A DNA stretch of 64,000 nt from Lachnospiraceae bacterium (lineage in GTDB: Bacteria; Bacillota; Clostridia; Lachnospirales; Lachnospiraceae): positions 26,019 to 90,018 of the forward strand of contig JAUNGI010000007.1 in NCBI GenBank assembly GCA_030524525.1. Direction: 5' to 3'. Both the position numbers and the translations under genes were made by a program. Position 1 is the first letter of the stretch. Each line of letters opens with the position of its first letter. Positions 21,421 through 53,828 of this stretch are shown piece after piece. The notes beneath the pieces are model-generated. The model ran no database searches, was not told where the DNA came from, and saw only the letters and a list, made by a program, of their open reading frames with translations.

Positions 21421-21422
21421 CC

Positions 21423-22292: not shown

Positions 22293-22308
22293 AAAGGAGA
22301 ATATGACC

Positions 22309-23568
22309 ATGAGCAAGGTTCTTGTCATCGGATGCGGCGGCGTTGCCTCCGTCGCCATTCACAAATGCTGTCATGTAAGCGAGGTCTTTACCGAGTTGTG
22401 CATCGCCAGCCGCACCAAGTCCAAATGCGACAAGCTGGCGGCTGAGCTGGCGCCCCAAACCGCCACAAAGATCACCACCGCGCAGGTGGATGCGGACGAC
22501 GTGCAGCAGGTCATTGCGCTGATCCGTTCCTATCAGCCGGAGCTGGTCATGAACATTGCGCTGCCCTATCAGGATCTGACCATTATGGACGCCTGTCTTG
22601 CCTGCGGCGTCAACTATATGGACACCGCCAATTACGAGCCGGAGGACACCGACGACCCGGAGTGGCGCGCCGTCTATGAAAAGCGCTGCAAGGAGGCGGG
22701 CTTCTCCGCCTATTTCGATTACAGCTGGCAGTGGGCGTACCGCAAAAGGTTTGAGGACGCCGGTCTGACCGCGCTGCTGGGCTGCGGCTTTGATCCGGGC
22801 GTGACGCAGGCTTACTGCGCCTATGCGAAAAAGCATGAGTTCGATTCCATCGACACCATCGACATTCTGGACTGCAACGGCGGCGATCACGGCTATGCCT
22901 TTGCCACCAATTTTAATCCGGAGGTCAATCTGCGCGAGGTCTCGGCTCCGGGCAGCTACTGGGAAGACGGCCGCTGGGTCGAGATCCCGCCCATGAGCGT
23001 CAAGCGGGAATATGACTTCGATCAAGTGGGGCGCAAGGATATGTATCTGCTTCACCACGAGGAGATCGAAAGTCTGGCGCTGAATATCCCGGAGGCAAAG
23101 CGCATCCGCTTCTTTATGACGTTCGGTCAGAGCTATCTTGACCATATGCGCTGTCTTGAGGACGTGGGGATGCTGTCCACAAGCCCCGTGGAATTTGAGG
23201 GACAGCAGATCGTTCCCATCAAATTTTTGAAAGCGCTGCTGCCCGACCCCGCCAGCCTTGGGCCGCGCACCAAGGGCAAGACCAACATCGGCTGTATTTT
23301 CACCGGGAAAAAGGACGGCAAGGAGAAGACCTACTACATCTACAATGTCTGCGATCATCAGGAGTGCTACCGCGAGGTGGGCAGTCAGGCGATCAGCTAC
23401 ACCACCGGCGTCCCCGCCATGTGCGGCGCGCTGATGCTGCTGACCGGTCAGTGGAACAAGCCCGGCGTCTACACCGTGGAGGAGCTGGACCCCGATCCCT
23501 TCTTGGATGCGCTTGACCAATACGGTCTGCCCCGGAGCGAGAGCCGGACGCCGGTTCTGGTGGACTGA
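22309..23568 (+). CDS. Carboxyspermidine/carboxynorspermidine dehydrogenase
   Basis: The 419-residue protein belongs to the saccharopine dehydrogenase-like family: an N-terminal Rossmann motif 'VLVIGCGGVASVAIHKC', 'DTANYEPED' and 'GCGFDPGVTQAYCAYA'. It reductively condenses aspartate-semialdehyde with a diamine (putrescine) or agmatine using NADPH, giving the carboxy-amine that NspC decarboxylates. The neighbour nspC fixes this over lysine metabolism. The start at 22309 has AAGGAG 9 bases upstream; an ATG two codons earlier is possible. It ends in a one-base overlap (TGATG) with nspC. Confidence 0.9.
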   Translation: MSKVLVIGCGGVASVAIHKCCHVSEVFTELCIASRTKSKCDKLAAELAPQTATKITTAQVDADDVQQVIALIRSYQPELVMNIALPYQDLTIMDACLACGVNYMDTANYEPEDTDDPEWRAVYEKRCKEAGFSAYFDYSWQWAYRKRFEDAGLTALLGCGFDPGVTQAYCAYAKKHEFDSIDTIDILDCNGGDHGYAFATNFNPEVNLREVSAPGSYWEDGRWVEIPPMSVKREYDFDQVGRKDMYLLHHEEIESLALNIPEAKRIRFFMTFGQSYLDHMRCLEDVGMLSTSPVEFEGQQIVPIKFLKALLPDPASLGPRTKGKTNIGCIFTGKKDGKEKTYYIYNVCDHQECYREVGSQAISYTTGVPAMCGALMLLTGQWNKPGVYTVEELDPDPFLDALDQYGLPRSESRTPVLVD

Positions 23569-24818
23569 TGGGCGCGCCGCGGACAACAGACCCCCGCCCG
23601 CCGTTCGCGGGGCTGAACGGACATACTCCGGAGGAGCTGTTTGGCTCGCTGCCCACGCCCTGCTATATTCTGGACGAGGCCGCGCTGCGCAGAAACGGCG
23701 AGCTCCTTGCGGACGTGGCAAAGCGCACGGGCTGCAAAATTTTGCTGGCGCAGAAGGCGTTTTCCAACTACGAGCTTTACCCGGTCTTGGCGCCCTATCT
23801 GGCGGGAACCGAGGCAAGCGGTCTGTACGAGGCGCGCTTGGGAGCCGAGGAAATGCCGGGCGGAGAAGTCCACGTTTTTTGCGGAGCCTACCGGGACGAA
23901 GAATTCGCGGAGCTGCTGCGCTACGCCGATCACATCGTATTCAACTCCCCCCGCCAGCTGGAAAGGTTCGGTCCGGCGGCAAAGCAGGCTGGAAAAAGCG
24001 TGGGGCTGCGCGTCAATCCGGAGCGCTCCACGCAGGAGGGACATGCGATCTACGATCCCTGCGCTCCCGGCAGCCGCATGGGTACGACCCGCGCCCAATG
24101 GGATGAAAAAATGACGCCGGAGCTGCTCTCTCTGCTTGACGGACTTCACTTCCACACCTTATGCGAGCAGGATTCCGACGCCTTGGAGGTTACGCTGGAC
24201 GCCGCGGCGGAACGGTTCGGCGACGTTCTTCCCCGCATGAAGTGGCTCAACATGGGCGGCGGGCACCATATCACCAAGCCGGGCTATGACGTGGTCCGGC
24301 TGGAACGCTGCATCCGCAGAGCACAGCAGGCTTGGGACATACAGGTATATCTGGAGCCGGGCGAGGCGTGCGCGCTGAACGCGGGCTACCTTGCCGCCCG
24401 CGTGCTGGATGTTTTCCGAAACGGGGAGATCCGGCTCGCGATTCTGGACGCAAGCGCCGCCTGCCACATGCCCGACGTTCTGGAAATGCCCTACCGCCCG
24501 CCGCTTTACGGCGCGGAGGACCGGGACGAATTGCCCTCCCACGGCGCGGGAACGCCGGATAACCCGCCCCATGTCTTTCGACTCGGCGGCCCCACCTGTC
24601 TGGCGGGGGACGTGATCGGCGATTACGCCTTCCCGGCGCCGCTTCGCGAAGGCGAGCTGCTGCTGTTCGGAGACATGGCGATCTATACCACCTGCAAGAA
24701 CAACACCTTCAACGGAATGCCGCTGCCAAGCATCTACGTCCTGCGAGAGGACGGACGGCTGGACTGCCTGCGAAGGTTCGGCTATGAGGACTTCCGGGGA
24801 CGCTTGGGAGGAAAATAG
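23568..24818 (+). CDS. nspC: Carboxynorspermidine/carboxyspermidine decarboxylase
   Basis: The 416-residue protein is an alanine-racemase-fold PLP decarboxylase with 'PTPCYILDEAAL', the PLP-lysine 'ILLAQKAFSNYELYPVL', 'LNMGGGHHITKPGYD', 'EPGEACALNAGYL' and the substrate-Cys segment 'RLGGPTCLAGDVIGDY'. These match NspC more than LysA. It removes CO2 from carboxyspermidine to give spermidine. It is the last gene of the operon, followed 10 bases later by a bidirectional terminator. The first ~20 residues are extra compared with typical NspC, so the start could be later. Confidence 0.92.
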   Translation: MGAPRTTDPRPPFAGLNGHTPEELFGSLPTPCYILDEAALRRNGELLADVAKRTGCKILLAQKAFSNYELYPVLAPYLAGTEASGLYEARLGAEEMPGGEVHVFCGAYRDEEFAELLRYADHIVFNSPRQLERFGPAAKQAGKSVGLRVNPERSTQEGHAIYDPCAPGSRMGTTRAQWDEKMTPELLSLLDGLHFHTLCEQDSDALEVTLDAAAERFGDVLPRMKWLNMGGGHHITKPGYDVVRLERCIRRAQQAWDIQVYLEPGEACALNAGYLAARVLDVFRNGEIRLAILDASAACHMPDVLEMPYRPPLYGAEDRDELPSHGAGTPDNPPHVFRLGGPTCLAGDVIGDYAFPAPLREGELLLFGDMAIYTTCKNNTFNGMPLPSIYVLREDGRLDCLRRFGYEDFRGRLGGK

Positions 24819-24828
24819 GAGGAAAATA

Positions 24829-24857
24829 AAAAGAATCCCGCATTGCGAGATTCTTTT
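24829..24857. terminator. Bidirectional terminator between nspC and the kinase-like gene
   Basis: AAAAGAATC (24829-24837) pairs with GATTCTTTT (24849-24857) around a GCATTGCG loop region. It serves both convergent genes and partly resembles the TTGCGAGATTCT block of repeat family 2. Confidence 0.8.
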
Positions 24858-24858
24858 C

Positions 24859-25689
24859 CTACTCCGCGCTCTCCCATTCCCGTATCAGCTGCCAAACGGA
24901 CGGCTGCCGGTCGCTTCGGTCGTTCGCCGTGGCCTTCTCCGCCACCCGGTAAAGCGCTTCTCCCAGCGGCCAGCGGTCGTAGGTGCGGCTGTAGCCCCCG
25001 AACAGGGCAAACGCCATTGCGCCTGCGGTATATACGTTGGTCACCTCGTCCAGCGGCGCGCCCAGCTCGAATTCCTCGGGCGACATAAAGCTGGAGCTGC
25101 CCCACATGCGTCCCATGTCGTTGACGCAGGGCTTTTTCCGAAACAGGTCGATGTCGCAGAACGTGGTTTTGCCGTTCTCGAAATCGTACAAAATACTGCC
25201 GTCATAAAAATCAGCGGCAACATAACCGCGCCGATTGACCTCGGCAAGAAAATCAAGCACGTCGCGGAACACCTTCCGGCGCACGGAAATCGACAGGTTC
25301 ATGAACCTCCGGTGCCCCTCCGGATACATTCTTCCCATGCAGTCGCCGTCTGCCCAGCAAAATACAAGCGCAAACCCGCCGCCGATCTCCTCGGCGCCTA
25401 CCAGCTCGATCAGATTCTGCTGCTTCAGATCGCGGTAGATCGGCAGAACCGCTTTCAGCCGCTCCACCGCCGCCTCCGGCGTTCCCGAATACTCCGCCGT
25501 CGGCGCGCCCGCGAATTTCACAAAGTACTTCTGACCGTCCTTTTCCGTGCCAAAGCAGATATTGCCGGAATCCTGATCGTCGAAGACCTTGAACACCCTC
25601 CCATATCTGCTCAAAAAGGCAAAATCAAACGGAGCCTTCAATTTGAACGAACAACCGTCGATCTCCTGTATATGCAGCCCCTTGCGCAT
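24859..25689 (-). CDS. Divergent serine/threonine kinase-like protein
   Basis: The ~276-residue protein has a reduced protein-kinase layout: 'KYFVKFAG' (ATP lysine), a helix with 'ERLKAVLPIYRDL', a catalytic-loop region 'GYVAADFYDGSILYDF' in place of HRDLKPxN, 'FCDIDLF' in place of DFG, and 'SFMSPEEF...NVYTAGAMAFALF' matching the APE and DVYSxG segments. The catalytic Asp and metal Asp are kept, but the HRD His is Ala and the Asn is Ser, so activity is uncertain. There is no membrane segment. Start 25689 has AAAGGA close upstream; an ATG 12 codons earlier is possible but sits at a repeat edge without a ribosome binding site. It stands alone between the polyamine operon and the Dlt-like cluster. 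Confidence 0.7.
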   Translation of the reverse strand: MRKGLHIQEIDGCSFKLKAPFDFAFLSRYGRVFKVFDDQDSGNICFGTEKDGQKYFVKFAGAPTAEYSGTPEAAVERLKAVLPIYRDLKQQNLIELVGAEEIGGGFALVFCWADGDCMGRMYPEGHRRFMNLSISVRRKVFRDVLDFLAEVNRRGYVAADFYDGSILYDFENGKTTFCDIDLFRKKPCVNDMGRMWGSSSFMSPEEFELGAPLDEVTNVYTAGAMAFALFGGYSRTYDRWPLGEALYRVAEKATANDRSDRQPSVWQLIREWESAE

Positions 25690-25727
25690 CTCTTCCTTTA
25701 TAACCAGCTCCACACGAATCCTCATTT

Positions 25728-25809: not shown

Positions 25810-26763
25810 TTATTTCTCCACCTTCCTCTTCCAGCGCGCCAGACAGTCGTTCCACTTGGCATAGCGCTCCGAATCTCGGCAATCGGAAAGCTCGTAATGC
25901 GCCTTCAGATAACTTCCCAAATATTGCGTCACCTTTTTGGCGCCGCTGTAATTCATATGGTCGCCGTAATCTCTCGTATCCTTCGTCCAGTCGATGGCGA
26001 CCTCGTCCGACAGCAGATTCATGTCCAGATACGGAACCGAAAGCCGATCTGCCAGCTCCTGAATCCCGTTGTGCCTCTTATAGTTCCAGCACTTGGCGCT
26101 CGGCGTGCTGTACAGCATAAGCTCCGCGCCGTTCTTCTCGCACAGCTTTGCAATGTACGAAACATACCGTTCGTTCAGCCACGCGATCTTTTCCGTCTCC
26201 TCCGTCGGAACCATATAATTTTTTTTCTCCGCCGGGCGGCTCTTTTTATTGAACAGATAGCCCTTGCCGTCGTCCGTCCATGTATATTCCACCCTGCCCG
26301 AAAGGTCGTTCACGTTCAGACTCTTCCAGCGGTCGTGATAATTCAGCACCGGAAGCGAATCCCGGCTTACGTTCACCAGAAATTCAATGCCGGTGATCTT
26401 GCGGTAGATCGCGTTCGCCTCAAGAAGCACGACCTTGGGCTTCTGCGTCCTAAGCGCCTGCTGCAGCAGGGACGCGGAGTAGGGAAGCTGCTGCGCCTTC
26501 GTACAGCACACATACGAGGGGATGCCGTACTGCTCCCACAGAGCCATCGGGACAAGTCCGGAATACGCCAGACTGTCGCCGATCACAAGCACCTCGATCG
26601 TATTTTCCGGCTCTCCCAAAATTCCGTTCGCCTGCACGTCCTGCATGCCGAACTCCTTCCGGTTGTTCTTCGGAACAAACAGCCGGGACAGCAGCAGAAG
26701 CATACACAGCAGCCCAAACAGAAAGACGAAGCACCGGGCAATTTTTCTTCCCTTTTGTTTCAT
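25810..26763 (-). CDS. SGNH-type exported protein, DltD/AlgJ-like
   Basis: The 317-residue protein has one N-terminal membrane anchor (about residues 7-28) and an extracytoplasmic SGNH-like domain: 'LVIGDSLAYSGLVP' holds the Gly-Asp-Ser nucleophile and 'DYGDHMNYSGAKKV' the C-terminal Asp-x-x-His. This is the arrangement in DltD and AlgJ/AlgX proteins, which help an MBOAT partner transfer acyl groups to extracellular polymers. It is the last gene of the Dlt-like run, 10 bases after the MBOAT gene. The ATG at 26763 follows AGGGG; the frame upstream overlaps the MBOAT gene. The polymer acylated is unknown. Confidence 0.82.
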   Translation of the reverse strand: MKQKGRKIARCFVFLFGLLCMLLLLSRLFVPKNNRKEFGMQDVQANGILGEPENTIEVLVIGDSLAYSGLVPMALWEQYGIPSYVCCTKAQQLPYSASLLQQALRTQKPKVVLLEANAIYRKITGIEFLVNVSRDSLPVLNYHDRWKSLNVNDLSGRVEYTWTDDGKGYLFNKKSRPAEKKNYMVPTEETEKIAWLNERYVSYIAKLCEKNGAELMLYSTPSAKCWNYKRHNGIQELADRLSVPYLDMNLLSDEVAIDWTKDTRDYGDHMNYSGAKKVTQYLGSYLKAHYELSDCRDSERYAKWNDCLARWKRKVEK

Positions 26764-26773
26764 AAGAATACCC

Positions 26774-28366
26774 CTAAAAATTTGCATAGATCGGGTCCAC
26801 CGGAATGTAGCCGGGGCCGTATGCGCCAAAAACGATAACGAACAGGATCAGCGCATAGTACAGCGCCCAGCGAAGCACGGTCGGCTTTTCCGCCGTCCGC
26901 TGCCGGATCTGCACGCCGCGTTCCTTCAAAACGCCAAACAGGAAGACGATCGCGACGGTGACGCCCACGATGATGAAATCCTGCCGATCCATTCCCATTT
27001 CAAAAATCTTTCCGCTTTTGAACGAGGAAAGCGAAAAGCTGCCGACCATCCTGCCGAACATTTTCATGCCGATGCCAAGCTCCGGCGCACGGAAAAACAG
27101 CTCGCCGATACAGACCAGAACGCCGGTCTTCAAAATGCGGAGCCCCGTGCAGACCGCTCCGTTCCGGCGGAGCCGAAGCTTCTCGTAGGTCTTGTGCACG
27201 AACGGCTCAAACACATTGCCGAGCAGGATCAGCACAAAGTGATAGATCCCGAAAAAGATATAGTTCCAGCCCGCGCCGTGCCAAATGCCATTAGAGAACC
27301 AGACGCAGAACAGGGCGACCGCCCCGGCGAGCAGCGGGCCGAAATGATTTCCGAGCCGCTTGCGCCCCCACGTCGTCAGCTTCTTTAACGGCTTGGAAAG
27401 CGTGACCGGATAGAAAATATAATCCCGGAACCATGTGCCCAGCGTGATATGCCACCGTTTCCAAAACTCCGAGATGCTCTTGGAGAAAAAGGGCTGCCGG
27501 AAGTTTTCCGGAAGCCGGATGCCAAAGATCTCGGCGGCGCCGATGACAATGTCCATCGTGCCGGAAAATTCCATGTAAAGCTGACAGGTATAGCCCACCG
27601 CGGCAAGCGCGATCACGCCGCCGTCATACTGCGCATAGTCCGCGAACACCGGCTTGATAAAGGCGTTCAGCCGATCCGCCACAACGACCTTTTTCATAAC
27701 GCCGTACAAAATGCGCTGCGCGCCGAACGTCAGGCTCCGGTAGGAAACGCTCGGACATTCCCAGAGCGCCTGCGCCGTATCGGAATAGCGGCAGATGGGT
27801 CCCTCCATGATCTGGGGGAAAAAGCTCAGGAACAGCGCCAGACGGAACAGGTTCCGGTCGGCGGGAACGCTCCCCCGGTAAACGTCGAACAGATAGGACA
27901 GCGCCTGCAGCGTATAGAACGAAATGCCGATCGGCGCAAGGATCTTCACCGTGGACAGCCTGAGCGGTAAATGCAGCACCTCAAACAGATTGTTCAGGTT
28001 CCAGCCAAAGAACGCCGTATATTTGACCGCGACCAAAATTCCGATGTGCAGCACCACCGCAAAGCCCATCACCATGCGCTGCTTATGAAGATACTGCTGC
28101 TTGATCGCCTTGCGCTCGCTCCGCTCCACGCCCTGCAGGGCGGCGTCCCGCTCGTTCGCAAGCAGGGAGAGCCACAGCCCGATGTGATGCACCGAAAGCG
28201 TGGAGAACAGCAGATAGAGCAAAAGCTTTCCGCTGAGGATCCAAAAAAAGACATAGCTCGCGGCAAGCAGAACGACCCGCCGTCCTTTCTGCGGAAGCGC
28301 CTGATACAACGCCACCGTCAGCGGCAGAAAAACGCCCAAAAAAACCACCGAACAGTAAGAATACAT
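26774..28366 (-). CDS. MBOAT membrane O-acyltransferase, DltB/AlgI-like
   Basis: The 530-residue protein has about 11 membrane helices and the MBOAT signature: 'ISEFWKRWHITLGTWFRDYIFYPV' and the catalytic-His segment 'WFSNGIWHGAGWNYIFFG'. These proteins take an acyl group from a carrier on the cytoplasmic side and move it to a polymer outside. It is longer than DltB (about 400 residues) and closer to AlgI length. The start at 28366 follows GAGGT; an ATG 7 codons earlier would also work. It lies 25 bases after the carrier protein gene, which implies that the carrier feeds this enzyme. Confidence 0.9.
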   Translation of the reverse strand: MYSYCSVVFLGVFLPLTVALYQALPQKGRRVVLLAASYVFFWILSGKLLLYLLFSTLSVHHIGLWLSLLANERDAALQGVERSERKAIKQQYLHKQRMVMGFAVVLHIGILVAVKYTAFFGWNLNNLFEVLHLPLRLSTVKILAPIGISFYTLQALSYLFDVYRGSVPADRNLFRLALFLSFFPQIMEGPICRYSDTAQALWECPSVSYRSLTFGAQRILYGVMKKVVVADRLNAFIKPVFADYAQYDGGVIALAAVGYTCQLYMEFSGTMDIVIGAAEIFGIRLPENFRQPFFSKSISEFWKRWHITLGTWFRDYIFYPVTLSKPLKKLTTWGRKRLGNHFGPLLAGAVALFCVWFSNGIWHGAGWNYIFFGIYHFVLILLGNVFEPFVHKTYEKLRLRRNGAVCTGLRILKTGVLVCIGELFFRAPELGIGMKMFGRMVGSFSLSSFKSGKIFEMGMDRQDFIIVGVTVAIVFLFGVLKERGVQIRQRTAEKPTVLRWALYYALILFVIVFGAYGPGYIPVDPIYANF

Positions 28367-28391
28367 CTCTACCTCACCAAAGCGCAAACGC

Positions 28392-28619
28392 TTATTCTTC
28401 CATCAGCCGCTGGATCAGCGCCCAGATCGCCTCTGCGGAATTGAAATTCTCCGGCACGATCTCCACGGTCGGTACGGTAACGTCAAATTCGTCCTCGATC
28501 CCCGCGATCAGCGAAATGATCATCAGTGAGGTCAGATAGTGACCGTCCACCAGATCGTCGCAGGTCTCGTAGTCCACCTCCGGGTTAATTTCCTCCAAAA
28601 TCTCAATCAGTTGTTCCAT
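28392..28619 (-). CDS. Acyl/peptidyl carrier protein, DltC-like
   Basis: The 75-residue acidic protein has the carrier fold. The usual 'DSL' phosphopantetheine site is replaced by 'LTSLMIISLI', with Ser31 as the likely attachment site, and the following helix 'IEDEFDVTVP' is typical. It lies one base after the PLP enzyme gene and 25 bases before the MBOAT gene. By analogy with DltC it would carry an aminoacyl or amine-derived group as a thioester from the ligase to the membrane transferase. Confidence 0.87.
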   Translation of the reverse strand: MEQLIEILEEINPEVDYETCDDLVDGHYLTSLMIISLIAGIEDEFDVTVPTVEIVPENFNSAEAIWALIQRLMEE

Positions 28620-28620
28620 G

Positions 28621-29820
28621 TTATTCCATTCCTTTCTTTTCGCCGTTTTCCTGCGGCATATTCATTTTATAGGTTTCCAGCGTCCCCCGCACAAGCTCGG
28701 CTTCGCCGCCGTCCCGCAGAAGAACCACCGCCGGCAGCGCCCGGCTCAGAAAGAGCGAGATGCCCTCGGTCATACAATATGCGCCCGTATTTTCAAATAC
28801 AAGCACGTCGCCGATCTGCGGGCCGCACAGCGGAAGCTGCTTTACCAAAATGTCGTTGACCGTACAGAGGGAGCCGCAGAGGTTCCACTTCTCCGGCTCG
28901 CCCGACCGCTCCGGGTACGCGTGACAGAGGGGAAGCTTCATCGCCATAGACTGCCCGTAATATACGAGATGATTCATGCCGCCGTCCACGATCGCATAGT
29001 TCTGATCGTGGTTGCTCTTTTTGTCCACGATCCGGGTCAGGTAAACGCCGCAGGACGCGGCGATGCTCCGTCCCAGCTCCAGCACAAGGCGGGGCTTTTC
29101 CTCCATCCCGCGAAGCAGCTCCGAGAATTCCGCAAGAAACGCGGCCTCGTCAAATTCCTCCGACGCAAAATACATCACCGGGAAGCCCGGCCCAAACTCC
29201 AGCTCCCTTGCCTCGTAGCCGAACTCCTCGCGCAGCCCCCGCAGAACGCCCTGCACATAGTCCAGCTCGCGCCGAAGCCGCTTCAGCGACGTCTTCTGCG
29301 TTCCCGAAAAGTATTGCAGCCCCTGAAAGTCCAAAAACGGGTAGGACGCGCGGTTTCGGATGGTCTCCCGCACCTCCTCCTCCGCCATGCCGAACTGGTT
29401 CCCGCTCGTAAGACGAAGCAGCACCGGAAGCCGTTCCCGCCTTTCCTCGGAAAGCCTTGCCAGCAGCGCAAGCTGCGAAAGCGATTCCGCCGTGTAAGCC
29501 CCGATCGGGCCGCCGCTCCGCGTCAGCTCCGCAATGACCTCCGGCGATTTATACACTCCGGAGATCACAAATTGCTCCGAGGGCAGCGCAAGCTCCTGGC
29601 AGATGCGCAGCTCGCCGGGCGAGCACAGCTCAAAGCGATCGACCAGACCCTCCAGCTCTCCGACGATAAACGGATTCGCCTTGATCGCATAGCAGAGCCC
29701 CACGCCGTCCGGCAGATTTTCCCGCAGAAAGCGGACGCGCTCCCGAAGCACACGGGCGTCAAAGACGTAGGTCGGCGTCGGAAAGCTTCGAGTCAGATAT
29801 TCCAGCTCATGTCGTTCCAT
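28621..29820 (-). CDS. Fold-III PLP enzyme of the Orn/DAP/Arg decarboxylase 2 family
   Basis: The 399-residue protein has 'PTPTYVFDARVLRERV', the PLP-lysine 'LCYAIKANPF' (Lys47), a Gly-rich 'ELEFGPGFPVMY', 'LELGRSIAASCG' in place of EPGR, and 'CGSLCTVNDILVKQLPL' where LysA has the CESxD substrate loop. PLP fold and the active-site Cys are kept, but the specificity loops differ from LysA, SpeC and NspC. It may decarboxylate or epimerise the amino acid that the neighbouring ligase activates, or act on the carrier-bound form. The start at 29820 overlaps the ligase end by 14 bases, so the two are translationally coupled. Confidence 0.82.
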   Translation of the reverse strand: MERHELEYLTRSFPTPTYVFDARVLRERVRFLRENLPDGVGLCYAIKANPFIVGELEGLVDRFELCSPGELRICQELALPSEQFVISGVYKSPEVIAELTRSGGPIGAYTAESLSQLALLARLSEERRERLPVLLRLTSGNQFGMAEEEVRETIRNRASYPFLDFQGLQYFSGTQKTSLKRLRRELDYVQGVLRGLREEFGYEARELEFGPGFPVMYFASEEFDEAAFLAEFSELLRGMEEKPRLVLELGRSIAASCGVYLTRIVDKKSNHDQNYAIVDGGMNHLVYYGQSMAMKLPLCHAYPERSGEPEKWNLCGSLCTVNDILVKQLPLCGPQIGDVLVFENTGAYCMTEGISLFLSRALPAVVLLRDGGEAELVRGTLETYKMNMPQENGEKKGME

Positions 29821-31342
29821 TTTTTTCACCCTTCCTCTCCTTTGCCAGTCGGAGCAGCTCCTTTCGGTCAATCTTGCCGTTCTTGGTCATGGGCATGCTC
29901 TCCACGGGCTTTAGAACGCCGGGGATCATATAGACCGGAAGCATTGTTTTCAGCGTTCCGAACAGCTCCTTTTTGTCCAGCGTCCCAAGATAAAAGCCGT
30001 ATAGCCTGCTCTTTTCCGCGTCGAATACGCAGCAGCAGCGTTCGATCCCCGGAACCTCCGACATGCGCTTTTCGATCTCCTCCAGCTCGATGCGGTGTCC
30101 CATGTACTTGATCTGAAAATCCTTTCTGCCGCAAAAAAACAGCTCTCCGTTTTCGTCGAACCTTCCGAGATCGCCGGTGCGGTAAAGAACGTCGCGGAAC
30201 CTTTCGTTCAGCGGATTCTGCACAAACGCCCGCTCCGTCTGCTCCTTTGCGCAGTAGTAGCCCAGCGCCACGCCGCTTCCGCGCACGCAGATCTCTCCGG
30301 TCTTTCCCACTTCCGTGACCCGACGGTTTTGGTCGTCCAGCAGCACGATCTGCTTATTGGGAAACGCTCGCCCGACGGGAATTCCGGCTTCGTAGTCCCG
30401 GCTCCGGTCGATGCGGTGATAGGTACAGTTGCAGGTGATCTCCGTGGGACCGTACAGATTCACAAACGCCGCCTTTGGCAGATGCTCCATCCAAGACCGC
30501 AGATGCCGAAGCGGCATGACCTCGCCGCTGAACAGCACCTTGTTTACCGTTTCCGGCGTTTTGTAGTCCAGTCCGTGGACGGTGCTGATGAGGCACAGGG
30601 CGGAAACCGCCCACACAAGCGTCGTGACCCTTTTCTCGCAGAGATAGTCGAGCAGCTCCGCGGGGCGGGAAAACAGCGATCGGGGAATGATCACAAGCGT
30701 GGCTCCCACGGCGACCGCCGAGTAGATATCCTTTACGGAAACGTCAAAGTCAAACGGCGCCTGATTGCCGATGCGGTCGTTCTCCCCAATGGAAAACAGC
30801 TCGGTAAAGCTGCCGATAAAATCCAGCACCGACCGGTGGCTCACAACGACGCCCTTCGGCACTCCGGTGGAGCCGGAGGTGAAATTCGCATAGAGCGGGT
30901 CAACGTCCAGCATCGTTTCCCTTGCCCCCGCAAGCAGCGCCCCGTCGATTTCCGCCGTTTTCAGCTCCTCCACGCAAAGCAGCAGCGCCTCCGGAAAGAT
31001 CGCGGCGGCAGCCGGCCGGCTTTCCCGGTCGGTAAGGATATACGGCGCGCGCAGCACCTCCTCGATCTGCAAAAGCCGCTGCGGCGGCAGCTCCGGATTG
31101 AGCTGGGAATAAAAGCCCCCCGCATAGACGATGCCGAAAAAGGCGCAGACCGTGTCGATCCCCTTTTCCATATAGACCGCGACCGGCGTATTGGCGTCAA
31201 TCTTCGCCGCCAGCGCGCTGCCGATGCGCCTGCTCCGTTCCAGAAGCTCCGCGTAGGTGCAGCGGCTCTGCGGCCCCTCCACGGCGATCTTCTCCGGATA
31301 TTTTTCCGCCGTCCGTTCCAGCCATTCCAATACACATTTCAT
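29807..31342 (-). CDS. Adenylating ligase, DltA/NRPS adenylation-domain-like
   Basis: The 511-residue protein has the adenylate-forming core motifs: 'FTSGSTGVPKGVVVSH', 'NLYGPTEITCNCTY', 'YRTGDLGRFDENGELFFCGRKDFQIKYMGHRIELEEIE' segments (A7-A8) and 'TKNGKIDRKEL' with the A10 lysine. Length and layout fit DltA or a stand-alone NRPS A domain. It activates an amino acid (or similar) with ATP and loads it on the carrier protein downstream. The residue pocket cannot be assigned by eye. GGAGAG lies before the ATG. It follows the sensor kinase gene by 65 bases in the same direction and probably shares its transcript. Confidence 0.87.
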   Translation of the reverse strand: MKCVLEWLERTAEKYPEKIAVEGPQSRCTYAELLERSRRIGSALAAKIDANTPVAVYMEKGIDTVCAFFGIVYAGGFYSQLNPELPPQRLLQIEEVLRAPYILTDRESRPAAAAIFPEALLLCVEELKTAEIDGALLAGARETMLDVDPLYANFTSGSTGVPKGVVVSHRSVLDFIGSFTELFSIGENDRIGNQAPFDFDVSVKDIYSAVAVGATLVIIPRSLFSRPAELLDYLCEKRVTTLVWAVSALCLISTVHGLDYKTPETVNKVLFSGEVMPLRHLRSWMEHLPKAAFVNLYGPTEITCNCTYHRIDRSRDYEAGIPVGRAFPNKQIVLLDDQNRRVTEVGKTGEICVRGSGVALGYYCAKEQTERAFVQNPLNERFRDVLYRTGDLGRFDENGELFFCGRKDFQIKYMGHRIELEEIEKRMSEVPGIERCCCVFDAEKSRLYGFYLGTLDKKELFGTLKTMLPVYMIPGVLKPVESMPMTKNGKIDRKELLRLAKERKGEKNGTT

Positions 31343-31407
31343 AATATTATCTCTCCGTTCCAGCCAGCATCATACCGGCTTTTGGTTCAGCCAGCCTGTA
31401 GTCAATC

Positions 31408-33027
31408 TTAATTTTGCTGAAGATTATCCGGCAGAACGTTTTCCGCCCGGCGCAGCCAGACGGAGAATTCCGTATGATACGGCTCCGCAGGCGCGGTCTC
31501 AAGCCGCAGCTCTCCGTGATGCAGCTCCACGATGCGCCTTACGACCGAAAGTCCCAGACCCGTGCTGCCGTTCGACTGACGCGCCGCGTCTCCGGTCACG
31601 AACGGCTCGAACACTCTTGCCGCGATCTCCTTGGAGATCCCCACGCCGTTGTCCGCAACGGTCAAACGGAGCCGCGGGCCTTCGTCCGCGATCGCCACAA
31701 AGATCGTCGTCCCCGCCGGATTGTACTTTAACGAATTGCCGATCAGATTTCCGATCAGACGCTTGATGAGCGTCCGATCCGCATTGACGTAAAGCGGCGC
31801 GTCCGGGATCGCAAGCTCCAGCTCAAAATGCTTTTCCTCGATCTCGTTGTATTTTTCGGAAAAGATCTCCTTGCAGGTCTCGCACAGATCCAGACATTCC
31901 AGCGTGGGGCAGTATTCGGGATGCTCGATCGACGAATATTCAAACAGCGAATTGACCAGCTCCACGGCGACCTTCGACTTTCGATAGATCGCTTCCAGAT
32001 ACTGTTCCTTCTTTTCCTCCGGGACCGCGCCTTCCGCAAAGGCGCGCGCATAACCGTAAATGACCGTCAGAGGCGTTTTGATATCGTGTGAAATGTTCGC
32101 CACGATCCTCCGGCTCTCCGAATTGATCCGTTCTTTTTCGCGCAGCGCGCTTTGCTGCGATTCCAGCAGCTCGTAAAAGCTTTGCAGCATCGCCCGGAAT
32201 TCCAGCGGCGTGTGCTCCCAGTCGAGCGCGTACGACTCGCCGCTCTTGTACGCCACCACCGCTTCGTTCAGCAAACGGAACTGTCTGCGTACCGTGTGGG
32301 AAAACCAGACCGCCTGAATGATCGTGACGGCGAGCAGCAGCGGAACGGCAAGCAGCCAAATTCGCCTTGTTTTCTGAACGACCTCGTCGTAGCCGTCCAT
32401 GCTGATCGACGAACCGGCAAACACCACCTGCCGCCACCGTCCCTGCCAATTCCGATATTGATATTTATATATCTCTGCCCCGTTATAAACGCCGTTGATC
32501 ATCTGAAACTCGATCCGGCTGAGCTTTTCCCTGCCGGGAAACAGATCCCCCTCAAGAATGTTCAGATCCTCGTCCAGCACCGCCTCGGCTTCGCAGACCA
32601 TTGCGTCGTTTTCCCAGTCGTAGGAGACCAGAAAGACATGGTGCCGCAGGTTCCCGTCCTCGTCCGTCTTTTCCAGAATGTTGTAATAGCCGTCGTCGTT
32701 CCAATCCAGAATAATATCTACGTTTTCCTTCTGTATCTTCTCGCCGAACACCTTGTCGCTCGTGTATATGATCCGCTCATTGTAATCCATCACGACGTAC
32801 TTGCAGCCGGGAAAGCTTTTCATTGGTATATTCTGAAAGTTTTCCTCAATCAGATCCTGCTCATACTCCAAAAAGTCCGACATGGACGGAAACGCATTGA
32901 ACAGAATTCGGTTGCTCCAGCTGTTAAACAGCCAGTAAATAATCAGGCAGGACAGAATATAGATAACAAAACGTATCATGCAGGTAACGACAAAGCTGTG
33001 CGTTATGTCCTTATAATTCACTTTCAA
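31408..33027 (-). CDS. Two-component sensor histidine kinase
   Basis: The 539-residue protein has a first membrane helix near residues 12-36, an extracytoplasmic domain of about 180 residues, a second helix near 222-242, a HAMP-like linker, then HisKA 'NISHDIKTPLTVIYGYA' with the phospho-His, N-box 'NLIGNSLKYN', 'DNGVGISKE' and 'TGLGLSVVRRIV'. It senses an unknown envelope signal. It overlaps the end of the response regulator gene by 17 bases and is followed by the Dlt-like set, which suggests that it controls envelope modification, as GraRS/VirRS-type systems do in other Firmicutes (analogy). Confidence 0.9.
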   Translation of the reverse strand: MKVNYKDITHSFVVTCMIRFVIYILSCLIIYWLFNSWSNRILFNAFPSMSDFLEYEQDLIEENFQNIPMKSFPGCKYVVMDYNERIIYTSDKVFGEKIQKENVDIILDWNDDGYYNILEKTDEDGNLRHHVFLVSYDWENDAMVCEAEAVLDEDLNILEGDLFPGREKLSRIEFQMINGVYNGAEIYKYQYRNWQGRWRQVVFAGSSISMDGYDEVVQKTRRIWLLAVPLLLAVTIIQAVWFSHTVRRQFRLLNEAVVAYKSGESYALDWEHTPLEFRAMLQSFYELLESQQSALREKERINSESRRIVANISHDIKTPLTVIYGYARAFAEGAVPEEKKEQYLEAIYRKSKVAVELVNSLFEYSSIEHPEYCPTLECLDLCETCKEIFSEKYNEIEEKHFELELAIPDAPLYVNADRTLIKRLIGNLIGNSLKYNPAGTTIFVAIADEGPRLRLTVADNGVGISKEIAARVFEPFVTGDAARQSNGSTGLGLSVVRRIVELHHGELRLETAPAEPYHTEFSVWLRRAENVLPDNLQQN

Positions 33028-33709
33028 TTTTGTACCCCAGCCCCCGGATCGTCTTAATATATTTCGGATTTGCCGTGTCGTCGCCGATCTTGGCGCGAAT
33101 GTTGGAGATATGCACCATCATCGTATTGTCGTCGCTTGCGTACCACTCTCCGTTGACGCATTCGTATAGCTGCGCCTTTGTAAATACCCTTCCCGGATTG
33201 CGCATGAGCTTTGCCATGATTTTCAGCTCGACCGAGGTCAGCGGCACGGTCTCTCCGTTCTTTTTCAGAATATACTGTTCGGTGTCAAATTCCAGCTCGC
33301 CGACCCTGAGCGTGGCAGCCGCGGCGTTCTCCGATCTGCCCATCCGGCAATATCTGCGGAGCATCGCCTTGACGTAGGCGACGACCTCCAGCGGGTCAAA
33401 CGGCTTGGTCAGATACGCGTCGGCGCCGATATCCAGCCCCAGTACGCGATCCACGTTCAGGTTCTTCGCGGAAATAATAATGATCGGAATATCGGTGCTC
33501 TGCCGGGCGGCGCGGATAAAGTCGTAACCGTTCATCTCCGGCATCATGATATCCACCAGCGCAACGGAAATGTCCTCCTTCGCCAGCACCGAAAGAGCCT
33601 CCTTCCCGTTTGCCGCCGGATAGACCGCAAAGCCGTTGCTCTCCAAATAAAGCGAAAGCAGCTCCACAATGTCGCTGTCGTCCTCCGCAACGAGTACCCC
33701 GTATTTCAT
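33011..33709 (-). CDS. OmpR/PhoB-family response regulator
   Basis: The 232-residue protein has a receiver domain with acidic pocket 'VAEDDSD', phospho-Asp in 'ALVDIMMPEMNGY' and Lys in 'YLTKPFDPLEV', then a winged-helix DNA-binding domain ending 'ISNIRAKIGDD...IKTIRGLGYKIESEL'. The ATG at 33709 gives a standard N-terminus; upstream residues in the longer frame are not receiver-like. The ribosome binding site is weak. It is coupled to the kinase by a 17-base overlap. Likely targets are the downstream Dlt-like genes and/or the upstream ABC transporter (inference). Confidence 0.92.
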   Translation of the reverse strand: MKYGVLVAEDDSDIVELLSLYLESNGFAVYPAANGKEALSVLAKEDISVALVDIMMPEMNGYDFIRAARQSTDIPIIIISAKNLNVDRVLGLDIGADAYLTKPFDPLEVVAYVKAMLRRYCRMGRSENAAAATLRVGELEFDTEQYILKKNGETVPLTSVELKIMAKLMRNPGRVFTKAQLYECVNGEWYASDDNTMMVHISNIRAKIGDDTANPKYIKTIRGLGYKIESEL

Positions 33710-33905: not shown

Positions 33906-35237
33906 TTATTTCCCGCGAATTACGCCGGTCAGCGTTTTCCAACTGATTTTCTGCCCGGTGTACAGCACCAGTCCGCGGTAGATGCGGGCGGTCAGCCAGA
34001 CAAGCGCCGCAGACGCTAAAAGCAAAAGCACCGTGGAAAGAACGCCGATCCCCCAGCCCACCGTTCCGGTCAGAAGCTCCGCAGGCACGCAGAACGGCGC
34101 GGTAAACGGAACGACCCGGCAAACGCGCAGAACCGTTTCGTTTTCCGCAAGCAGAGCGAAGTACGGCACGAGCCAGCCGATCAGAACCGGATAGATAAAG
34201 ACCGCCTGCGCGCTTGCGGTGTCCTCCGGCTTGGAAACGATGCTTCCCGCCACGCCTGCCAGCGCAAAGAACAGCAGACAGCCCGCGCTGAACACAACGA
34301 TCGCCAGAATCACGGACGGAACGCTCAGCGCCGTGCTGCCAAGCTCCTCCCGCAGGAAATTCACCGCCTGCGTTACCGTACTTCCGCCGTCCGGAAACAG
34401 CTTCGCCGCAGCAAACGAGCTTCCGAATACGCCCACCAAAATGCAGCCGATCCAAATAAAGCACTGGAGCATCGCCGTACTGAAAATGGCGAGCACCTTG
34501 CCCGTAACGAGCGCATACGGGTGGATGGAGGTCAGCAGCGTTTCCATAAGCTTGGAGGTCTTCTCCACCGAAACCTCCTTGCTGACGCTCTGCCCGTACA
34601 GCAAAACGATGAAGTACATAAACAGTCCGAACATCATGGGCGCAAGATACTTTATCAAAGTCGCGGCAAGGCTCGTCTGCTCGCCCGCCTCGATGCTCGA
34701 CGACATCACGGGCATTTGCAGCAGAACCACCTGCGCGGGCTGAATGTCCGCATTCAGAAGCACGGCGGCGTAAATGCAGTCCGTAAGCGCCGTTTCCAGT
34801 TCCTCCACGGAGTCTTCCTCCACGGACGATCCGTCCGGAATGAAAACGCTTAAAACGAGCCGGTCTTCCTCCCGCTTCAGCACGCCGGCGCAGGTACGCT
34901 CGGACTGCTCCGCCGCATAGGCGATCAGCTCCTCCACGGGACGCGTCCCCACCGTCTCCAGCGCAACGTCCGCCAGCTCCTCCTCGGAAGAAAACAGCTC
35001 CGGCAGGGCGTCAAGGGAAAGCTCCGTTTCATTCATCAGGCACAGCCGCTCGATCCTTCCCTCCTGCGCCTCCTCGTCTTCCTCCTCCGGCATGGCGGTG
35101 ATCAGAATGACCGCGGCGAGCACGCCCACCAGCAGAACGCCGATCAGCGCGGTAACGATCTTGAAGCGGGCGTTGCCCATATACTGCTTGCAGGTAAACG
35201 AATAGGCAAGCTTCCAATTTTTCAGTGAATGTTTCAT
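33906..35237 (-). CDS. ABC-2 type permease, NatB-like (second)
   Basis: The 443-residue protein has an N-terminal membrane helix (about 27-48), a large extracytoplasmic domain (about 50-195) and five to six further helices. 'VSVEKTSKLMETLLTSIHPYALVTGKVL' is the conserved cytoplasmic segment of NatB/YhaP-type permeases. It pairs with the adjacent permease and the ATPase to form an exporter. Its start overlaps the preceding permease stop by 4 bases. The external domain is rich in Glu and may bind a cation or peptide, but nothing specific is visible. Confidence 0.85.
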   Translation of the reverse strand: MKHSLKNWKLAYSFTCKQYMGNARFKIVTALIGVLLVGVLAAVILITAMPEEEDEEAQEGRIERLCLMNETELSLDALPELFSSEEELADVALETVGTRPVEELIAYAAEQSERTCAGVLKREEDRLVLSVFIPDGSSVEEDSVEELETALTDCIYAAVLLNADIQPAQVVLLQMPVMSSSIEAGEQTSLAATLIKYLAPMMFGLFMYFIVLLYGQSVSKEVSVEKTSKLMETLLTSIHPYALVTGKVLAIFSTAMLQCFIWIGCILVGVFGSSFAAAKLFPDGGSTVTQAVNFLREELGSTALSVPSVILAIVVFSAGCLLFFALAGVAGSIVSKPEDTASAQAVFIYPVLIGWLVPYFALLAENETVLRVCRVVPFTAPFCVPAELLTGTVGWGIGVLSTVLLLLASAALVWLTARIYRGLVLYTGQKISWKTLTGVIRGK

Positions 35238-36622
35238 AAAGCCCCCTTCTGCGTCTTCCGCTCCTTTTTCAGGCTCTTATAGATCCCGAACAGCTCCTTG
35301 AGCTTGATCGGGCTGCCGTTATGCGTGATGAGCAGCTCATAGATCGTCGCCACAAAGCGAAGCAGCAGCAGATCCACCGCCACAAGCACCGCGATCGCAA
35401 GGAACGCCGCCCAGCCGCCGATATTTCCCACCAGCAGCGCGCCCGGCAGCAGATACGGTGCGGAGAGCGGAAAGATCAGAGAAAACGTCACAAATGCGCT
35501 TTCTCCCGAAATCTGGAGCATGTTTGCCGCCGAAACGGCGACATAGACGCCGATCATGTTCGAGATCGTCAGGAGCATCAGCCCCTCCTGCGTTTCCTCG
35601 ATCTTGCTGACCGTCGCGCCGCACATGGCGGCAAGAACCGCGTAAAACAGAAAGCCGAAGCAGATCACCACGGCGGACAGCAAAAGGTTGAACGGATTGA
35701 TATTTGTCCAAATGCCCGCCGGAAGCAGCCCTTCCAGCACGCTCTTTTTCCCCGTCACCAGCCCGGTCACCCAGTTGGAGCCAAGCAGCAGTCCGATCAT
35801 GACAAACATCTGCCCCACCGAAGCAAGCAGCATTGCAAGCGTCTTGCCCATCACAAGCGCCATCGGACGAACGGAGGTCAGCAGAAGTTCCACGACGCGC
35901 GTCGATTTATCCACGACGATCGAAGTCGCGACCTGTGAGCTGGCAATGCAGTTGACCATCATAACCACGAACGCAACGCCGTACATGAGCCAATACTGCG
36001 CGTTGGAGATCTTCGTGTCTTCTTCCGCGATCGGCTTGTTGTTTTCGTCGGCATGCTGCACGAGCAGCGCTACCTGCGTGTCCAAAACCGCCCGCTGCGC
36101 GTCCGTCAGCCCCGCCGCCGCTTCCTTAAAAGCCGCGACGCAGTCGGTCAGGCGATCCGCCAAGAAGCTTCCTTCCTCCTCGCCGATCGCTCCCGACGCG
36201 GGGCGCACGACCTCCATCGTCAGCCCAAGCTCTCCCATGTACAGCCGGGCGATCACGGTATCCTCCGTTTCCTCGCTTTCCAAGACTTTGAGCATTTCCT
36301 CATAGGGCACGTCCGCTTTTTCCAGCGCCGCCTCGGCGAACGCCGGCTCCGCGTGCACCGCCTCAAAGCTCATGCCCATCTCCGAAAAGGATGTTCCGAA
36401 CAGCTCCTCGGTCTCGTCGTACCAGACGATCCTGCGGATGCTGCTTTCGGTGAGCTTCTCGTCCCCGCCGCCCTGATTCTGAATCAGCTGCAAAAGCGGC
36501 ATGGAAACAAGGGAAAGCACCGCCAGCAGGATCGTAAAGATCAGATAGCCCCTGTTTTTGAGCGTCTGCACCAGCGTAAAGGCAAAGACCTTTCCGGTAC
36601 CGCGAAATTCACTCCTCTTCAT
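35234..36622 (-). CDS. ABC-2 type permease, NatB-like (first)
   Basis: The 462-residue protein has a membrane helix near residues 26-46, an extracytoplasmic part (about 47-205) and six C-terminal helices. 'SIVVDKSTRVVELLLTSVRPMALVMGKTLAM' is the conserved NatB-type segment. It is a paralogue of the downstream permease with the same architecture, so the transporter is probably a heterodimer plus ATPase dimer. Known relatives export Na+ or give resistance to ionophores and peptides; the substrate here is unknown. It starts within the end of the ATPase gene (14-base overlap). Confidence 0.85.
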   Translation of the reverse strand: MKRSEFRGTGKVFAFTLVQTLKNRGYLIFTILLAVLSLVSMPLLQLIQNQGGGDEKLTESSIRRIVWYDETEELFGTSFSEMGMSFEAVHAEPAFAEAALEKADVPYEEMLKVLESEETEDTVIARLYMGELGLTMEVVRPASGAIGEEEGSFLADRLTDCVAAFKEAAAGLTDAQRAVLDTQVALLVQHADENNKPIAEEDTKISNAQYWLMYGVAFVVMMVNCIASSQVATSIVVDKSTRVVELLLTSVRPMALVMGKTLAMLLASVGQMFVMIGLLLGSNWVTGLVTGKKSVLEGLLPAGIWTNINPFNLLLSAVVICFGFLFYAVLAAMCGATVSKIEETQEGLMLLTISNMIGVYVAVSAANMLQISGESAFVTFSLIFPLSAPYLLPGALLVGNIGGWAAFLAIAVLVAVDLLLLRFVATIYELLITHNGSPIKLKELFGIYKSLKKERKTQKGAL

Positions 36623-37550: not shown

Positions 37551-37580
37551 AACTCCCTCCATCACACAATAAACAAGCAT

Positions 37581-46901: not shown

Positions 46902-46969
46902 ATATGTCTGTCCTCCTATTGTTCAAAAATAAGTTGGAATATTCACGGCGCATGGCTGCCAACCGCTCA

Positions 46970-53705: not shown

Positions 53706-53828
53706 TAAGTGCAGCGCTGCAAAAACTCGCCCAACTCCCCCACACGAACTGCGGAAAACATGCCGCAAAAACTTGCCCAACTCTCCTCAACTCGCCCACA
53801 CGCGCTGCCGGAAGCACGCCCCCAAAAG
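53706..53828. other. Short spacer with imperfect direct repeats
   Basis: AAAAACTCGCCCAACTC-like blocks recur about three times between array C and the end of yhaM. No gene or clear hairpin terminator is seen. Confidence 0.4.

What the first reader, a model, noticed from the sequence alone, without database searches (positions are those of the whole stretch)
25810..33709. Dlt-like envelope modification cluster with an extra PLP decarboxylase and its own two-component system
Seen: on the minus strand, response regulator, kinase, adenylating ligase, fold-III PLP enzyme, carrier protein, MBOAT and SGNH protein follow with overlaps or gaps of at most 65 bases. Known: DltA/DltC/DltB/DltD add D-alanine to teichoic acids, and GraRS/VirRS-type systems control such changes against cationic peptides. 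The four Dlt-type roles are all present, but the cluster also has a decarboxylase-family enzyme with altered specificity loops (ELGR for EPGR, CTVND for CESxD). Inference: the modifying group is not plain D-alanine but an epimerised or decarboxylated amino acid, or an amine, moved to a surface glycan. The MBOAT is AlgI-sized, which hints at a polymer other than teichoic acid.
Basis: partly seen in the sequence, partly recalled or inferred. Interest (0 to 1): 0.82.

Follow-up and report, generated by a model that had tools for sequence, protein, structure and literature searches.

The report
Dlt-like cassette with built-in decarboxylase
This gene set appears to load a small amino acid on a carrier protein, remove a carboxyl group from it there, and pass the resulting positively charged group to a polymer on the cell surface; it looks like an uncharacterised cousin of the well-known D-alanine system.

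Summary
The core is ligase, fold-III PLP enzyme, carrier, MBOAT and SGNH protein; near the PLP gene in 80 relatives, the ligase is found in 77 and the carrier in 78. None passes a Dlt cut-off. The PLP enzyme's best solved match is BtrK, which decarboxylates carrier-bound glutamate; its 'altered loops' are BtrK-like. Among 30 genomes with related ligases, the PLP enzyme occurs in 10 of 10 whose ligase has the window's pocket and 0 of 20 with other pockets (one split of the tree, so not independent events). The MBOAT ends in a tyrosine motif like the DltX/PatA acyl shuttle. Best reading: an acidic amino acid is loaded by its side-chain carboxyl, decarboxylated on the carrier to beta-alanyl or GABA, and shuttled through MBOAT and SGNH protein to an extracellular polymer. 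Substrate, loading end and acceptor are not shown; the ligase lacks a loop feature of a known side-chain-loading enzyme. No description turned up in ten searches of an open-access library. A new variant of a known kind.

The parts
33011..33709 (-). OmpR-type response regulator
   Evidence: PF00072+PF00486; ATG seen; window-type RR/HK pair in 14 of 35 MBOAT-similar loci
31408..33027 (-). sensor histidine kinase; 184-residue stretch between the hydrophobic segments (limits by eye) with 35 D+E against 19 K+R
   Evidence: PF00512+PF02518; composition
29807..31342 (-). stand-alone amino-acid adenylating ligase; pocket D200 V201 K204 V243 L270 S272 L296 C304 N305 K490
   Evidence: TIGR01733 over cut-off, DltA models below cut-off; D200, V201, K204, C304, N305 in 44 of 46 and S272, K490 in 46 of 46 aligned
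28621..29820 (-). fold-III PLP enzyme, predicted BtrK-like decarboxylase of a carrier-bound amino acid (residue numbers in this report count from the TTG at 29871, 17 residues before this ATG)
   Evidence: best solved match BtrK by single sequence and by profile; separate clade from LysA
28392..28619 (-). carrier protein; predicted phosphopantetheine site Ser31
   Evidence: weak PF00550, DltC and AmcB hits, all under cut-off; aligned Ser in 83 of 83 carriers (two of 85 loci had no carrier)
26774..28366 (-). MBOAT acyltransferase, 530 aa, conserved H363
   Evidence: PF03062 over cut-off, DltB model below cut-off; DltB the only solved matches; H363, Y527, F530 invariant in 39 of 39 aligned
26777..26794 (-). 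C-terminal PIYANF, predicted fused acyl-shuttle motif (Tyr527)
   Evidence: xxYxxF ends 67 of 68 clustered MBOAT frames; compare FXYXXF of DltX and PatA, PMC12148441 abstract and passages
25810..26763 (-). SGNH-type protein with N-terminal hydrophobic stretch; S64, D265/D268, H269
   Evidence: no family hit; G62-D63-S64, D265, H269 invariant and D268 nearly so in 32 selected relatives
24859..25725 (-). kinase-like protein, probably a downstream passenger
   Evidence: PF00069 below cut-off; no match in related loci
24828..24858 (-). terminator-like hairpin ending the run
   Evidence: 14-pair stem and T-rich tail

Best explanation
An envelope aminoacylation pathway with on-carrier decarboxylation. 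The ligase activates an acidic amino acid (Asp or Glu most likely) and loads it, by its side-chain carboxyl, on the carrier's phosphopantetheine arm. The PLP enzyme then removes the alpha-carboxyl while the amino acid is on the carrier, leaving a beta-alanyl or 4-aminobutyryl thioester. The MBOAT moves this group across the membrane onto the tyrosine of its own C-terminal motif, from which the SGNH protein takes it and esterifies an extracellular polymer. This would turn an anionic building block into a cationic ester. Shown here: gene content, conservation, conserved catalytic-type residues, co-occurrence of the PLP enzyme with one ligase clade, the tyrosine motif. Inferred: acidic substrate, side-chain loading, decarboxylation on the carrier, transfer to a polymer, regulation by the two-component pair.
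For: PLP enzyme: BtrK is the top solved match by sequence (E 9.5e-33) and by family profile (230.7 bits against 211.4 for the best DAP decarboxylase). Lys64, Glu81, Glu265, Cys336, Asp340 and Tyr365 are invariant in the 45-row alignment. [FY]-x-G-T-Q in 43 of 43 family rows and C-T-x-x-D in 41 of 43 resemble BtrK's YTGTQ and CTPED, whereas the ten LysA rows over the LysA cut-off all have H-[IV]-G-S and C-E-x-G-D. The genome has another, LysA-clade gene elsewhere. PLP family member at E<=1e-70 in 10 of 10 genomes with the DVK..S.CN ligase and 0 of 20 with other pockets, including two genomes where it is not beside that ligase copy. Lys at 204 (GrsA 239) is also kept in the DSKD group and in the DAKCAGLGM group, and both fetched members of the latter adjoin an Asp/Glu racemase. 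Precedents for a carrier-bound amino acid and a PLP decarboxylase: VinN/VinL/VinO, BolO/BolC/BolN (proposed by its authors), BtrI/BtrK (PMC11284099, PMC7756342, PMC7857480, passages). MBOAT frames end xxYxxF in 67 of 68, as in DltX and PatA (PMC12148441).
Against: VinN's one-residue-shorter beta13-beta14 loop and its Lys330/Arg331 (PMC11253843 passages) are not seen: the ligase family aligns without gap there to an LgrA adenylation domain and has Cys304/Asn305, so this feature does not support side-chain loading. BtrK's place in the PLP tree is unresolved. The C-T-x-x-D signature is not exclusive: L014, a protein outside the family that scores 286 bits, just under the LysA cut-off, has CTPID and ESGR. 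The PLP/pocket association is a single change on the ligase tree. Two PLP-linked ligases (L019, L020) have another pocket, I-A-R-G-C-S-Q-A-S-K, with Arg for Lys204 and no Asp at 200. L068 and L082 have no ligase near the PLP gene. In 16 of 80 loci no MBOAT was found within 6 kb; some are cut by contig ends (L061, L065, L079, L099), but at least six have 10 kb or nearly so on both sides (L054, L056, L074, L075, L089, L092). A GDS motif was recognised in only 35 of 64 clustered SGNH frames. No substrate, acceptor or activity was tested.
Confidence: 0.55

Rival explanations
1. The PLP enzyme works on a free amino acid and supplies the ligase with a ready-made product (for example beta-alanine or GABA), which is then loaded and transferred.
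For: Would also bind the PLP gene to one ligase type; in G202 the PLP gene is on another contig than the ligase. In the sister DAKCAGLGM group the racemase presumably supplies a free D-amino acid.
Against: BtrK is the nearest solved relative and acts on the carrier-bound form (PMC7857480 passage); in vicenistatin biosynthesis thioester formation is required before decarboxylation (PMC11284099 passage). A basic residue at 204, kept in 46 of 46 as K or R, is not obviously needed for a substrate without a second carboxylate.
Confidence: 0.15
2. The ligase loads the alpha-carboxyl of an amino acid and the PLP enzyme acts at another position or only inverts Calpha: for example decarboxylation of the second centre of carrier-bound DAP to lysyl, or epimerisation to a D-aminoacyl carrier.
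For: No loop shortening of the VinN kind; the PLP enzyme is also related to DAP decarboxylases; a sister clade adjoins an Asp/Glu racemase.
Against: Glu265 at the place of the PLP-ring glutamate of decarboxylases and Cys336 are invariant, not the racemase set (recalled); C-E-x-G-D of LysA is replaced by C-T-x-x-D; Ala_racemase_N is a hit just at its cut-off (24.3 against 24.1 bits).
Confidence: 0.2
3. It is a diverged D-alanine (Dlt) operon and the PLP gene is a racemase or passenger.
For: All four Dlt-type roles are present and DltA, DltB and DltC models match below cut-off; no other gene of the genome scores higher with the DltA model, and none passes its cut-off.
Against: DltA, DltB and DltC cut-offs missed by wide margins; DltA's L198 and C269 (PMC11253843 passage) are V201 and S272 here, with K204 added; PLP gene kept in 10 of 10 genomes of this ligase type examined.
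Confidence: 0.05
4. Overlapping question, not exclusive of the others: the acceptor in this window is a glycan or peptidoglycan and not a teichoic-type polymer.
For: In seven loci (L054-L057, L063, L074, L075) the trio sits without MBOAT among genes that look by eye like sugar aminotransferase, glycosyltransferase, epimerase and polymerase genes; the gene before the L075 ligase is a hexapeptide transferase. In L017 and L092 the trio has no MBOAT and lies among housekeeping-type genes.
Against: The own genome has two PF04464 (TagF-type) and four PF00884 (the family of LtaS) genes that could make a teichoic-type acceptor.
Confidence: 0.4

Closest known systems
Dlt system (DltA, DltC, DltB, DltX, DltD)
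   Same: Stand-alone ligase, carrier, MBOAT and SGNH-type protein; carrier-protein donor; shuttle-type tyrosine motif
   Different: Models score below cut-off; pocket differs; shuttle motif is at the MBOAT C-terminus and not on a neighbouring microprotein; added PLP enzyme
PatA/PatB and other MBOAT-SGNH pairs with a fused C-terminal motif
   Same: MBOAT with conserved His and C-terminal xxYxxF, followed by an SGNH partner
   Different: Those are described as using acyl-CoA and lacking a carrier protein (PMC12148441 passages); here a ligase and carrier accompany the MBOAT
VinN-VinL-VinO and BolO-BolC-BolN (beta-aminoacyl starter units); BtrI-BtrK (butirosin)
   Same: Carrier-bound amino acid plus PLP decarboxylase; BtrK is the best solved match
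   Different: Natural-product pathways; VinN loop, Lys330 and Arg331 not matched; the butirosin loading enzyme is of another type (recalled)
Exosortase-A-associated ligase and decarboxylase (TIGR03098, TIGR03099)
   Same: Same two enzyme types by model description; surface-polysaccharide setting (recalled)
   Different: Both models far below cut-off
Diaminopimelate decarboxylase LysA
   Same: Fold family and several catalytic residues
   Different: Below cut-off, distinct clade, different motifs; the genome has another gene in the LysA clade, itself at 280.7 bits under the 297.9 cut-off

Membership tests
Dlt D-alanylation system | DltA equivalog score | tested here: not met
   TIGR01734 281.6 bits, cut-off 559.85
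Dlt D-alanylation system | DltB and DltC equivalog scores | tested here: not met
   TIGR04091 169 against 375; NF003464 27.7 against 68
Dlt D-alanylation system | D-Ala pocket residues (L198, C269 of B. cereus DltA) | tested here: not met
   V201 and S272 at the corresponding places, K204 added
Dlt D-alanylation system | Separate DltX microprotein | tested here: inconclusive
   No room for one between ligase and SGNH gene (gaps of at most 25 bases) and the motif is on the MBOAT; the rest of the genome was not searched for DltX
Dlt D-alanylation system | Loads D-alanine | not testable with these tools
   needs an enzyme assay
Bacterial MBOAT-SGNH acyltransferases | MBOAT His and C-terminal FXYXXF with invariant Tyr | tested here: met
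   H363, Y527, F530 in 39 of 39 aligned; xxYxxF in 67 of 68 clustered frames, first residue F in 31, P in 25 (the window's), L or M in 11
Bacterial MBOAT-SGNH acyltransferases | SGNH partner with catalytic Ser and His | tested here: inconclusive
BtrK-type carrier-bound amino acid decarboxylases | Closest solved relative is BtrK | tested here: met
BtrK-type carrier-bound amino acid decarboxylases | Common clade with BtrK, apart from LysA | tested here: inconclusive
   window family is one clade (19 rows, 100/99), LysA another (11 rows, 99/99), BtrK unresolved
BtrK-type carrier-bound amino acid decarboxylases | Decarboxylates a carrier-bound substrate | not testable with these tools
   needs a carrier mass assay
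VinN-type side-chain-loading ligases | Asp at 235, bulky 236, Ser at 301, shortened beta13-beta14 loop, Arg331 | tested here: not met
   D200, V201 and S272 fit; loop not shortened in the alignment to LgrA, and N305 for Arg. VinN itself was not aligned
Exosortase-A-associated ligase/decarboxylase | TIGR03098 and TIGR03099 cut-offs | tested here: not met
   196.7 against 592.35; 174.4 against 478.45
Exosortase-A-associated ligase/decarboxylase | Exosortase in the genome | not tested
   no search made
LysA | TIGR01048 cut-off and LysA clade | tested here: not met
   167.7 against 297.9; outside the LysA clade

The most novel reading that the evidence does not exclude
A large family of carrier-fed MBOAT-SGNH systems decorates the cell surface of Clostridia and their neighbours with different amino acids from interchangeable supply modules, each ligase pocket travelling with its own tailoring enzyme (PLP decarboxylase, Asp/Glu racemase, GNAT or other). 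The window holds the decarboxylase module, which would place beta-alanyl or GABA esters on an envelope polymer and so change its charge from one common metabolite.
Probability: 0.45. Interest if true: 0.82.

Novelty: new variant of a known kind. Interest (0 to 1): 0.68.

Why it matters
If right, D-alanylation is one case of a wider way in which such bacteria tune surface charge, and a decarboxylation step known from antibiotic pathways also serves the cell envelope. The system joins two arms described as separate in PMC12148441 (carrier donor, fused tyrosine shuttle). The relatives fetched come mostly from records titled as Clostridia, Lachnospiraceae, Oscillospiraceae, Erysipelotrichaceae and Coriobacteriaceae, several with gut or rumen names, so the product could be a common surface feature. 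One purified-enzyme experiment would settle what the group is.

Tried and rejected
Rejected: housekeeping LysA (another LysA-clade gene in the genome); canonical Dlt; racemase as first choice (invariant decarboxylase-type residues); the kinase-like gene as a component; naming Asp or Glu from the pocket alone, since no assayed code that I know equals it (the comparison codes for Glu and for the iso-linked residues of microcystin are recalled, not from a call).

Led nowhere: solved-structure search with the SGNH protein; repeats upstream of the regulator gene, none; promoter-like sites, no more than chance (6 against a mean of 4.3 in shuffles); paper searches on MBOAT with beta-alanine (none), exosortase decarboxylases (none) and GABA or beta-alanine in teichoic acids (three unrelated).

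Paper searches: ten. Searches were aimed at the cluster or its product, the others at its enzymes. No listed paper describes the cluster by its title or by what I read; two searches listed 12 of 46 and 12 of 35 papers. Read beyond listings: abstract and passages of PMC12148441; passages of PMC11284099, PMC11253843, PMC7857480 and PMC7756342; no paper whole.
Full report
What is there. The seven genes lie on the minus strand as described, with gaps of 65, 1, 25 and 10 bases and overlaps of 17 and 14. Ligase: the amino acid adenylation model passes its cut-off (TIGR01733, 344.8 against 317.4), the DltA model does not (281.6 against 559.85). PLP enzyme: Orn/DAP/Arg decarboxylase domains. Carrier: weak carrier-protein hits under their cut-offs. 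MBOAT: PF03062 over cut-off, DltB model under it. SGNH protein: no family hit. Regulator and kinase are ordinary OmpR and HisKA types. A kinase-like gene and a terminator-like hairpin follow; that gene has no match in the related loci.

Conservation. Around them the ligase is found in 77 (L058 starts at the PLP gene; L068 and L082 lack it, with no masked bases), the carrier in 78 (the contigs of L061 and L079 end just after the PLP gene), an MBOAT of 100 bits or more within 6 kb in 64, and an SGNH protein of 40 bits or more within 8 kb in 45. The 16 without MBOAT include cut contigs and loci with about 10 kb on both sides. Of 35 loci with an MBOAT over 400 bits, 14 have the window-type regulator and kinase and seven more have a weaker-matching pair. 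Record titles name Clostridia, Lachnospiraceae, Oscillospiraceae, Erysipelotrichaceae and Coriobacteriaceae, with single records such as one Streptococcus suis and one Bacteroides bin. In the window's own genus only 2 of 22 genomes sampled, own included, have the PLP family, so its presence is patchy.

The PLP enzyme. Its best solved match is BtrK, by single sequence and by the profile of alignment A3. Two of the 45 rows of A3 (from L056 and L074) are only 22-24% identical and are not family members; Lys64, Glu81, Glu265, Cys336, Asp340 and Tyr365 are invariant in all 45. In the 43 family rows the motifs are [FY]-x-G-T-Q in 43, E-x-G-R in 43 and C-T-x-x-D in 41, the other two having C-S. BtrK has YTGTQ, ESGR and CTPED. 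The ten LysA rows over cut-off have H-[IV]-G-S and C-E-x-G-D in ten of ten; but L014, outside the family and just under the LysA cut-off, has CTPID, so this mark is not exclusive. On the tree the family is one clade (19 rows, 100/99) and LysA another (11 rows, 99/99); BtrK is unresolved. The genome's own LysA-clade gene lies elsewhere (G000:C44, 280.7 bits against a cut-off of 297.9).

The ligase pocket and a natural control. Read at GrsA positions 235, 236, 239, 278, 299, 301, 322, 330, 331 and 517 (mapped by alignment and recall of the GrsA sequence), the window ligase is D V K V L S L C N K. D, V, K, C and N are kept in 44 of 46 relatives and S and the last K in 46; the exceptions L019 and L020, both PLP-linked, read I A R G C S Q A S K. 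Of 246 genomes of the order, 53 have a ligase at E<=1e-80; the 30 best-scoring were examined, 23 were not. Ten have the DVK..S.CN pocket. The other twenty read DSKD..IVDK (12, two positions varying), DAKCAGLGMK (5), DNLFLCLDVK (2) and DAKDMLLGDK (1). A PLP family member at E<=1e-70 is in 10 of 10 of the first and 0 of 20 of the rest, where the best value is 1.2e-28. In two of the ten it is not beside that ligase copy: in G202 it is on another contig, next to a carrier gene on the opposite strand, and G187 has a second cluster on another contig, with PLP, carrier, MBOAT and SGNH genes and a ligase cut by the contig end. On the ligase tree the split is a single branch, 99/96 (the G202 and G187 ligases were left out of the label), so this is one long-kept association and not many independent ones.

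Other pockets, other neighbours. Seven loci with other pockets were fetched. Both DSKD loci (L136, L137) have a GNAT-family gene between ligase and carrier, both DAKCAGLGM loci (L139, L140) an Asp/Glu racemase directly upstream of the ligase; of the two DNLF loci one (L141) has an antibiotic-NAT-family gene between ligase and carrier and the other (L143) a gene with FkbM-methyltransferase and CoA-binding hits; L138 has nothing between ligase and MBOAT. Five of the seven (L136-L140) also show an MBOAT ending in FIYxxF and an SGNH-like gene; L141 and L143 show none in the stretch printed. Lys at GrsA position 239 is shared by the racemase-linked and the DSKD groups, which is my ground for an acidic substrate; the Glu code DAKDLGVVDK and the Arg239 of the iso-linked microcystin domains are recalled.

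The export arm. In Dlt, DltB passes the group to a tyrosine in the FXYXXF motif of DltX; PatA has that motif at its own C-terminus and acetylates itself there; pairs other than Dlt are said to use acyl-CoA and to lack a carrier protein (PMC12148441, abstract and passages). The window MBOAT ends in PIYANF. Of 68 frames in the MBOAT cluster (from 66 loci) 67 end in xxYxxF, 31 of them with F first; the odd one, in L071, is a 370-residue frame that looks broken or mis-called. His363, Tyr527 and Phe530 are invariant in 39 of 39 aligned. The carrier serine is present in 83 of 83 carriers. So the system combines a Dlt-type carrier donor with a PatA-type fused shuttle. The paper says that the motif sits on two transmembrane helices that DltB lacks, which would explain the large MBOAT (inference). 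The SGNH partner is the least secure part: a GDS motif is recognised in 35 of 64 clustered frames and conserved in the 32 selected for alignment.

Mechanism. Pathways with a PLP decarboxylase acting on a carrier-bound amino acid are described: BtrI/BtrK, VinN/VinL/VinO, and, as its authors propose, BolO/BolC/BolN; in the vicenistatin case the thioester must form first (PMC7857480, PMC11284099, PMC7756342, passages). By that logic the window's enzymes would make beta-alanyl- or 4-aminobutyryl-carrier. Against it, VinN's loop shortening and Arg331 (PMC11253843 passages) are absent, so an alpha-loaded alternative stays open at about one in five. The acceptor is unknown. The genome has two PF04464 and four PF00884 genes and three other MBOAT places, and no gene over the DltA cut-off. 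In seven relatives the trio lies without MBOAT in what looks by eye like a polysaccharide locus, so the acyl group may have more than one use. The role of the two-component pair is untested; the acidic make-up of its sensor stretch is only suggestive.

Limits. VinN, VinO and DltA sequences were not aligned here. The library of papers is open-access; that no description was found in ten searches does not show that none exists.

Noticed in passing
window 21312-24818 (+): Agmatinase (over cut-off), a carboxynorspermidine synthase-like gene (under cut-off) and NspC carboxynorspermidine decarboxylase (over cut-off) side by side: a polyamine cassette convergent with the finding; NspC is another PLP decarboxylase of the same fold family within 4 kb.
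   Followed up: partly
window 33906-37685 (-): Two genes that look by eye like ABC-2-type permeases and one ABC ATPase upstream of the response regulator, same strand.
   Followed up: no
window 37577-37849: 78-base tandem repeat, 3.5 copies, 90% matches.
   Followed up: no
window 46968-47119, 50110-50245, 53347-53706: Similar-looking arrays of 67-70-base units (each with a GTGCGC...GCGCACAC part) at three separate places.
   Followed up: no
L139:5950-6663, L140:7520-8212: Asp/Glu racemase genes directly upstream of a sister ligase (pocket DAKCAGLGMK), with MBOAT and SGNH-like genes: a candidate D-Asp or D-Glu surface modification system.
   Followed up: partly
L136:9277-10068, L137:5330-6121: GNAT-family gene between a sister ligase (pocket DSKD..IVDK) and its carrier: a candidate N-acylated aminoacyl modification.
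   Followed up: partly
L056:2991-4178, L074:1088-2305: A distant fold-III decarboxylase homologue (GFTCMENDRL / GFTCMEDDRL) in two of the polysaccharide-type loci that also hold the trio.
   Followed up: no
L017:6917-10164, L092:8455-11545: Ligase-PLP-carrier trio without MBOAT among housekeeping-type genes, followed by a conserved Ser-rich protein of about 250 residues.
   Followed up: no
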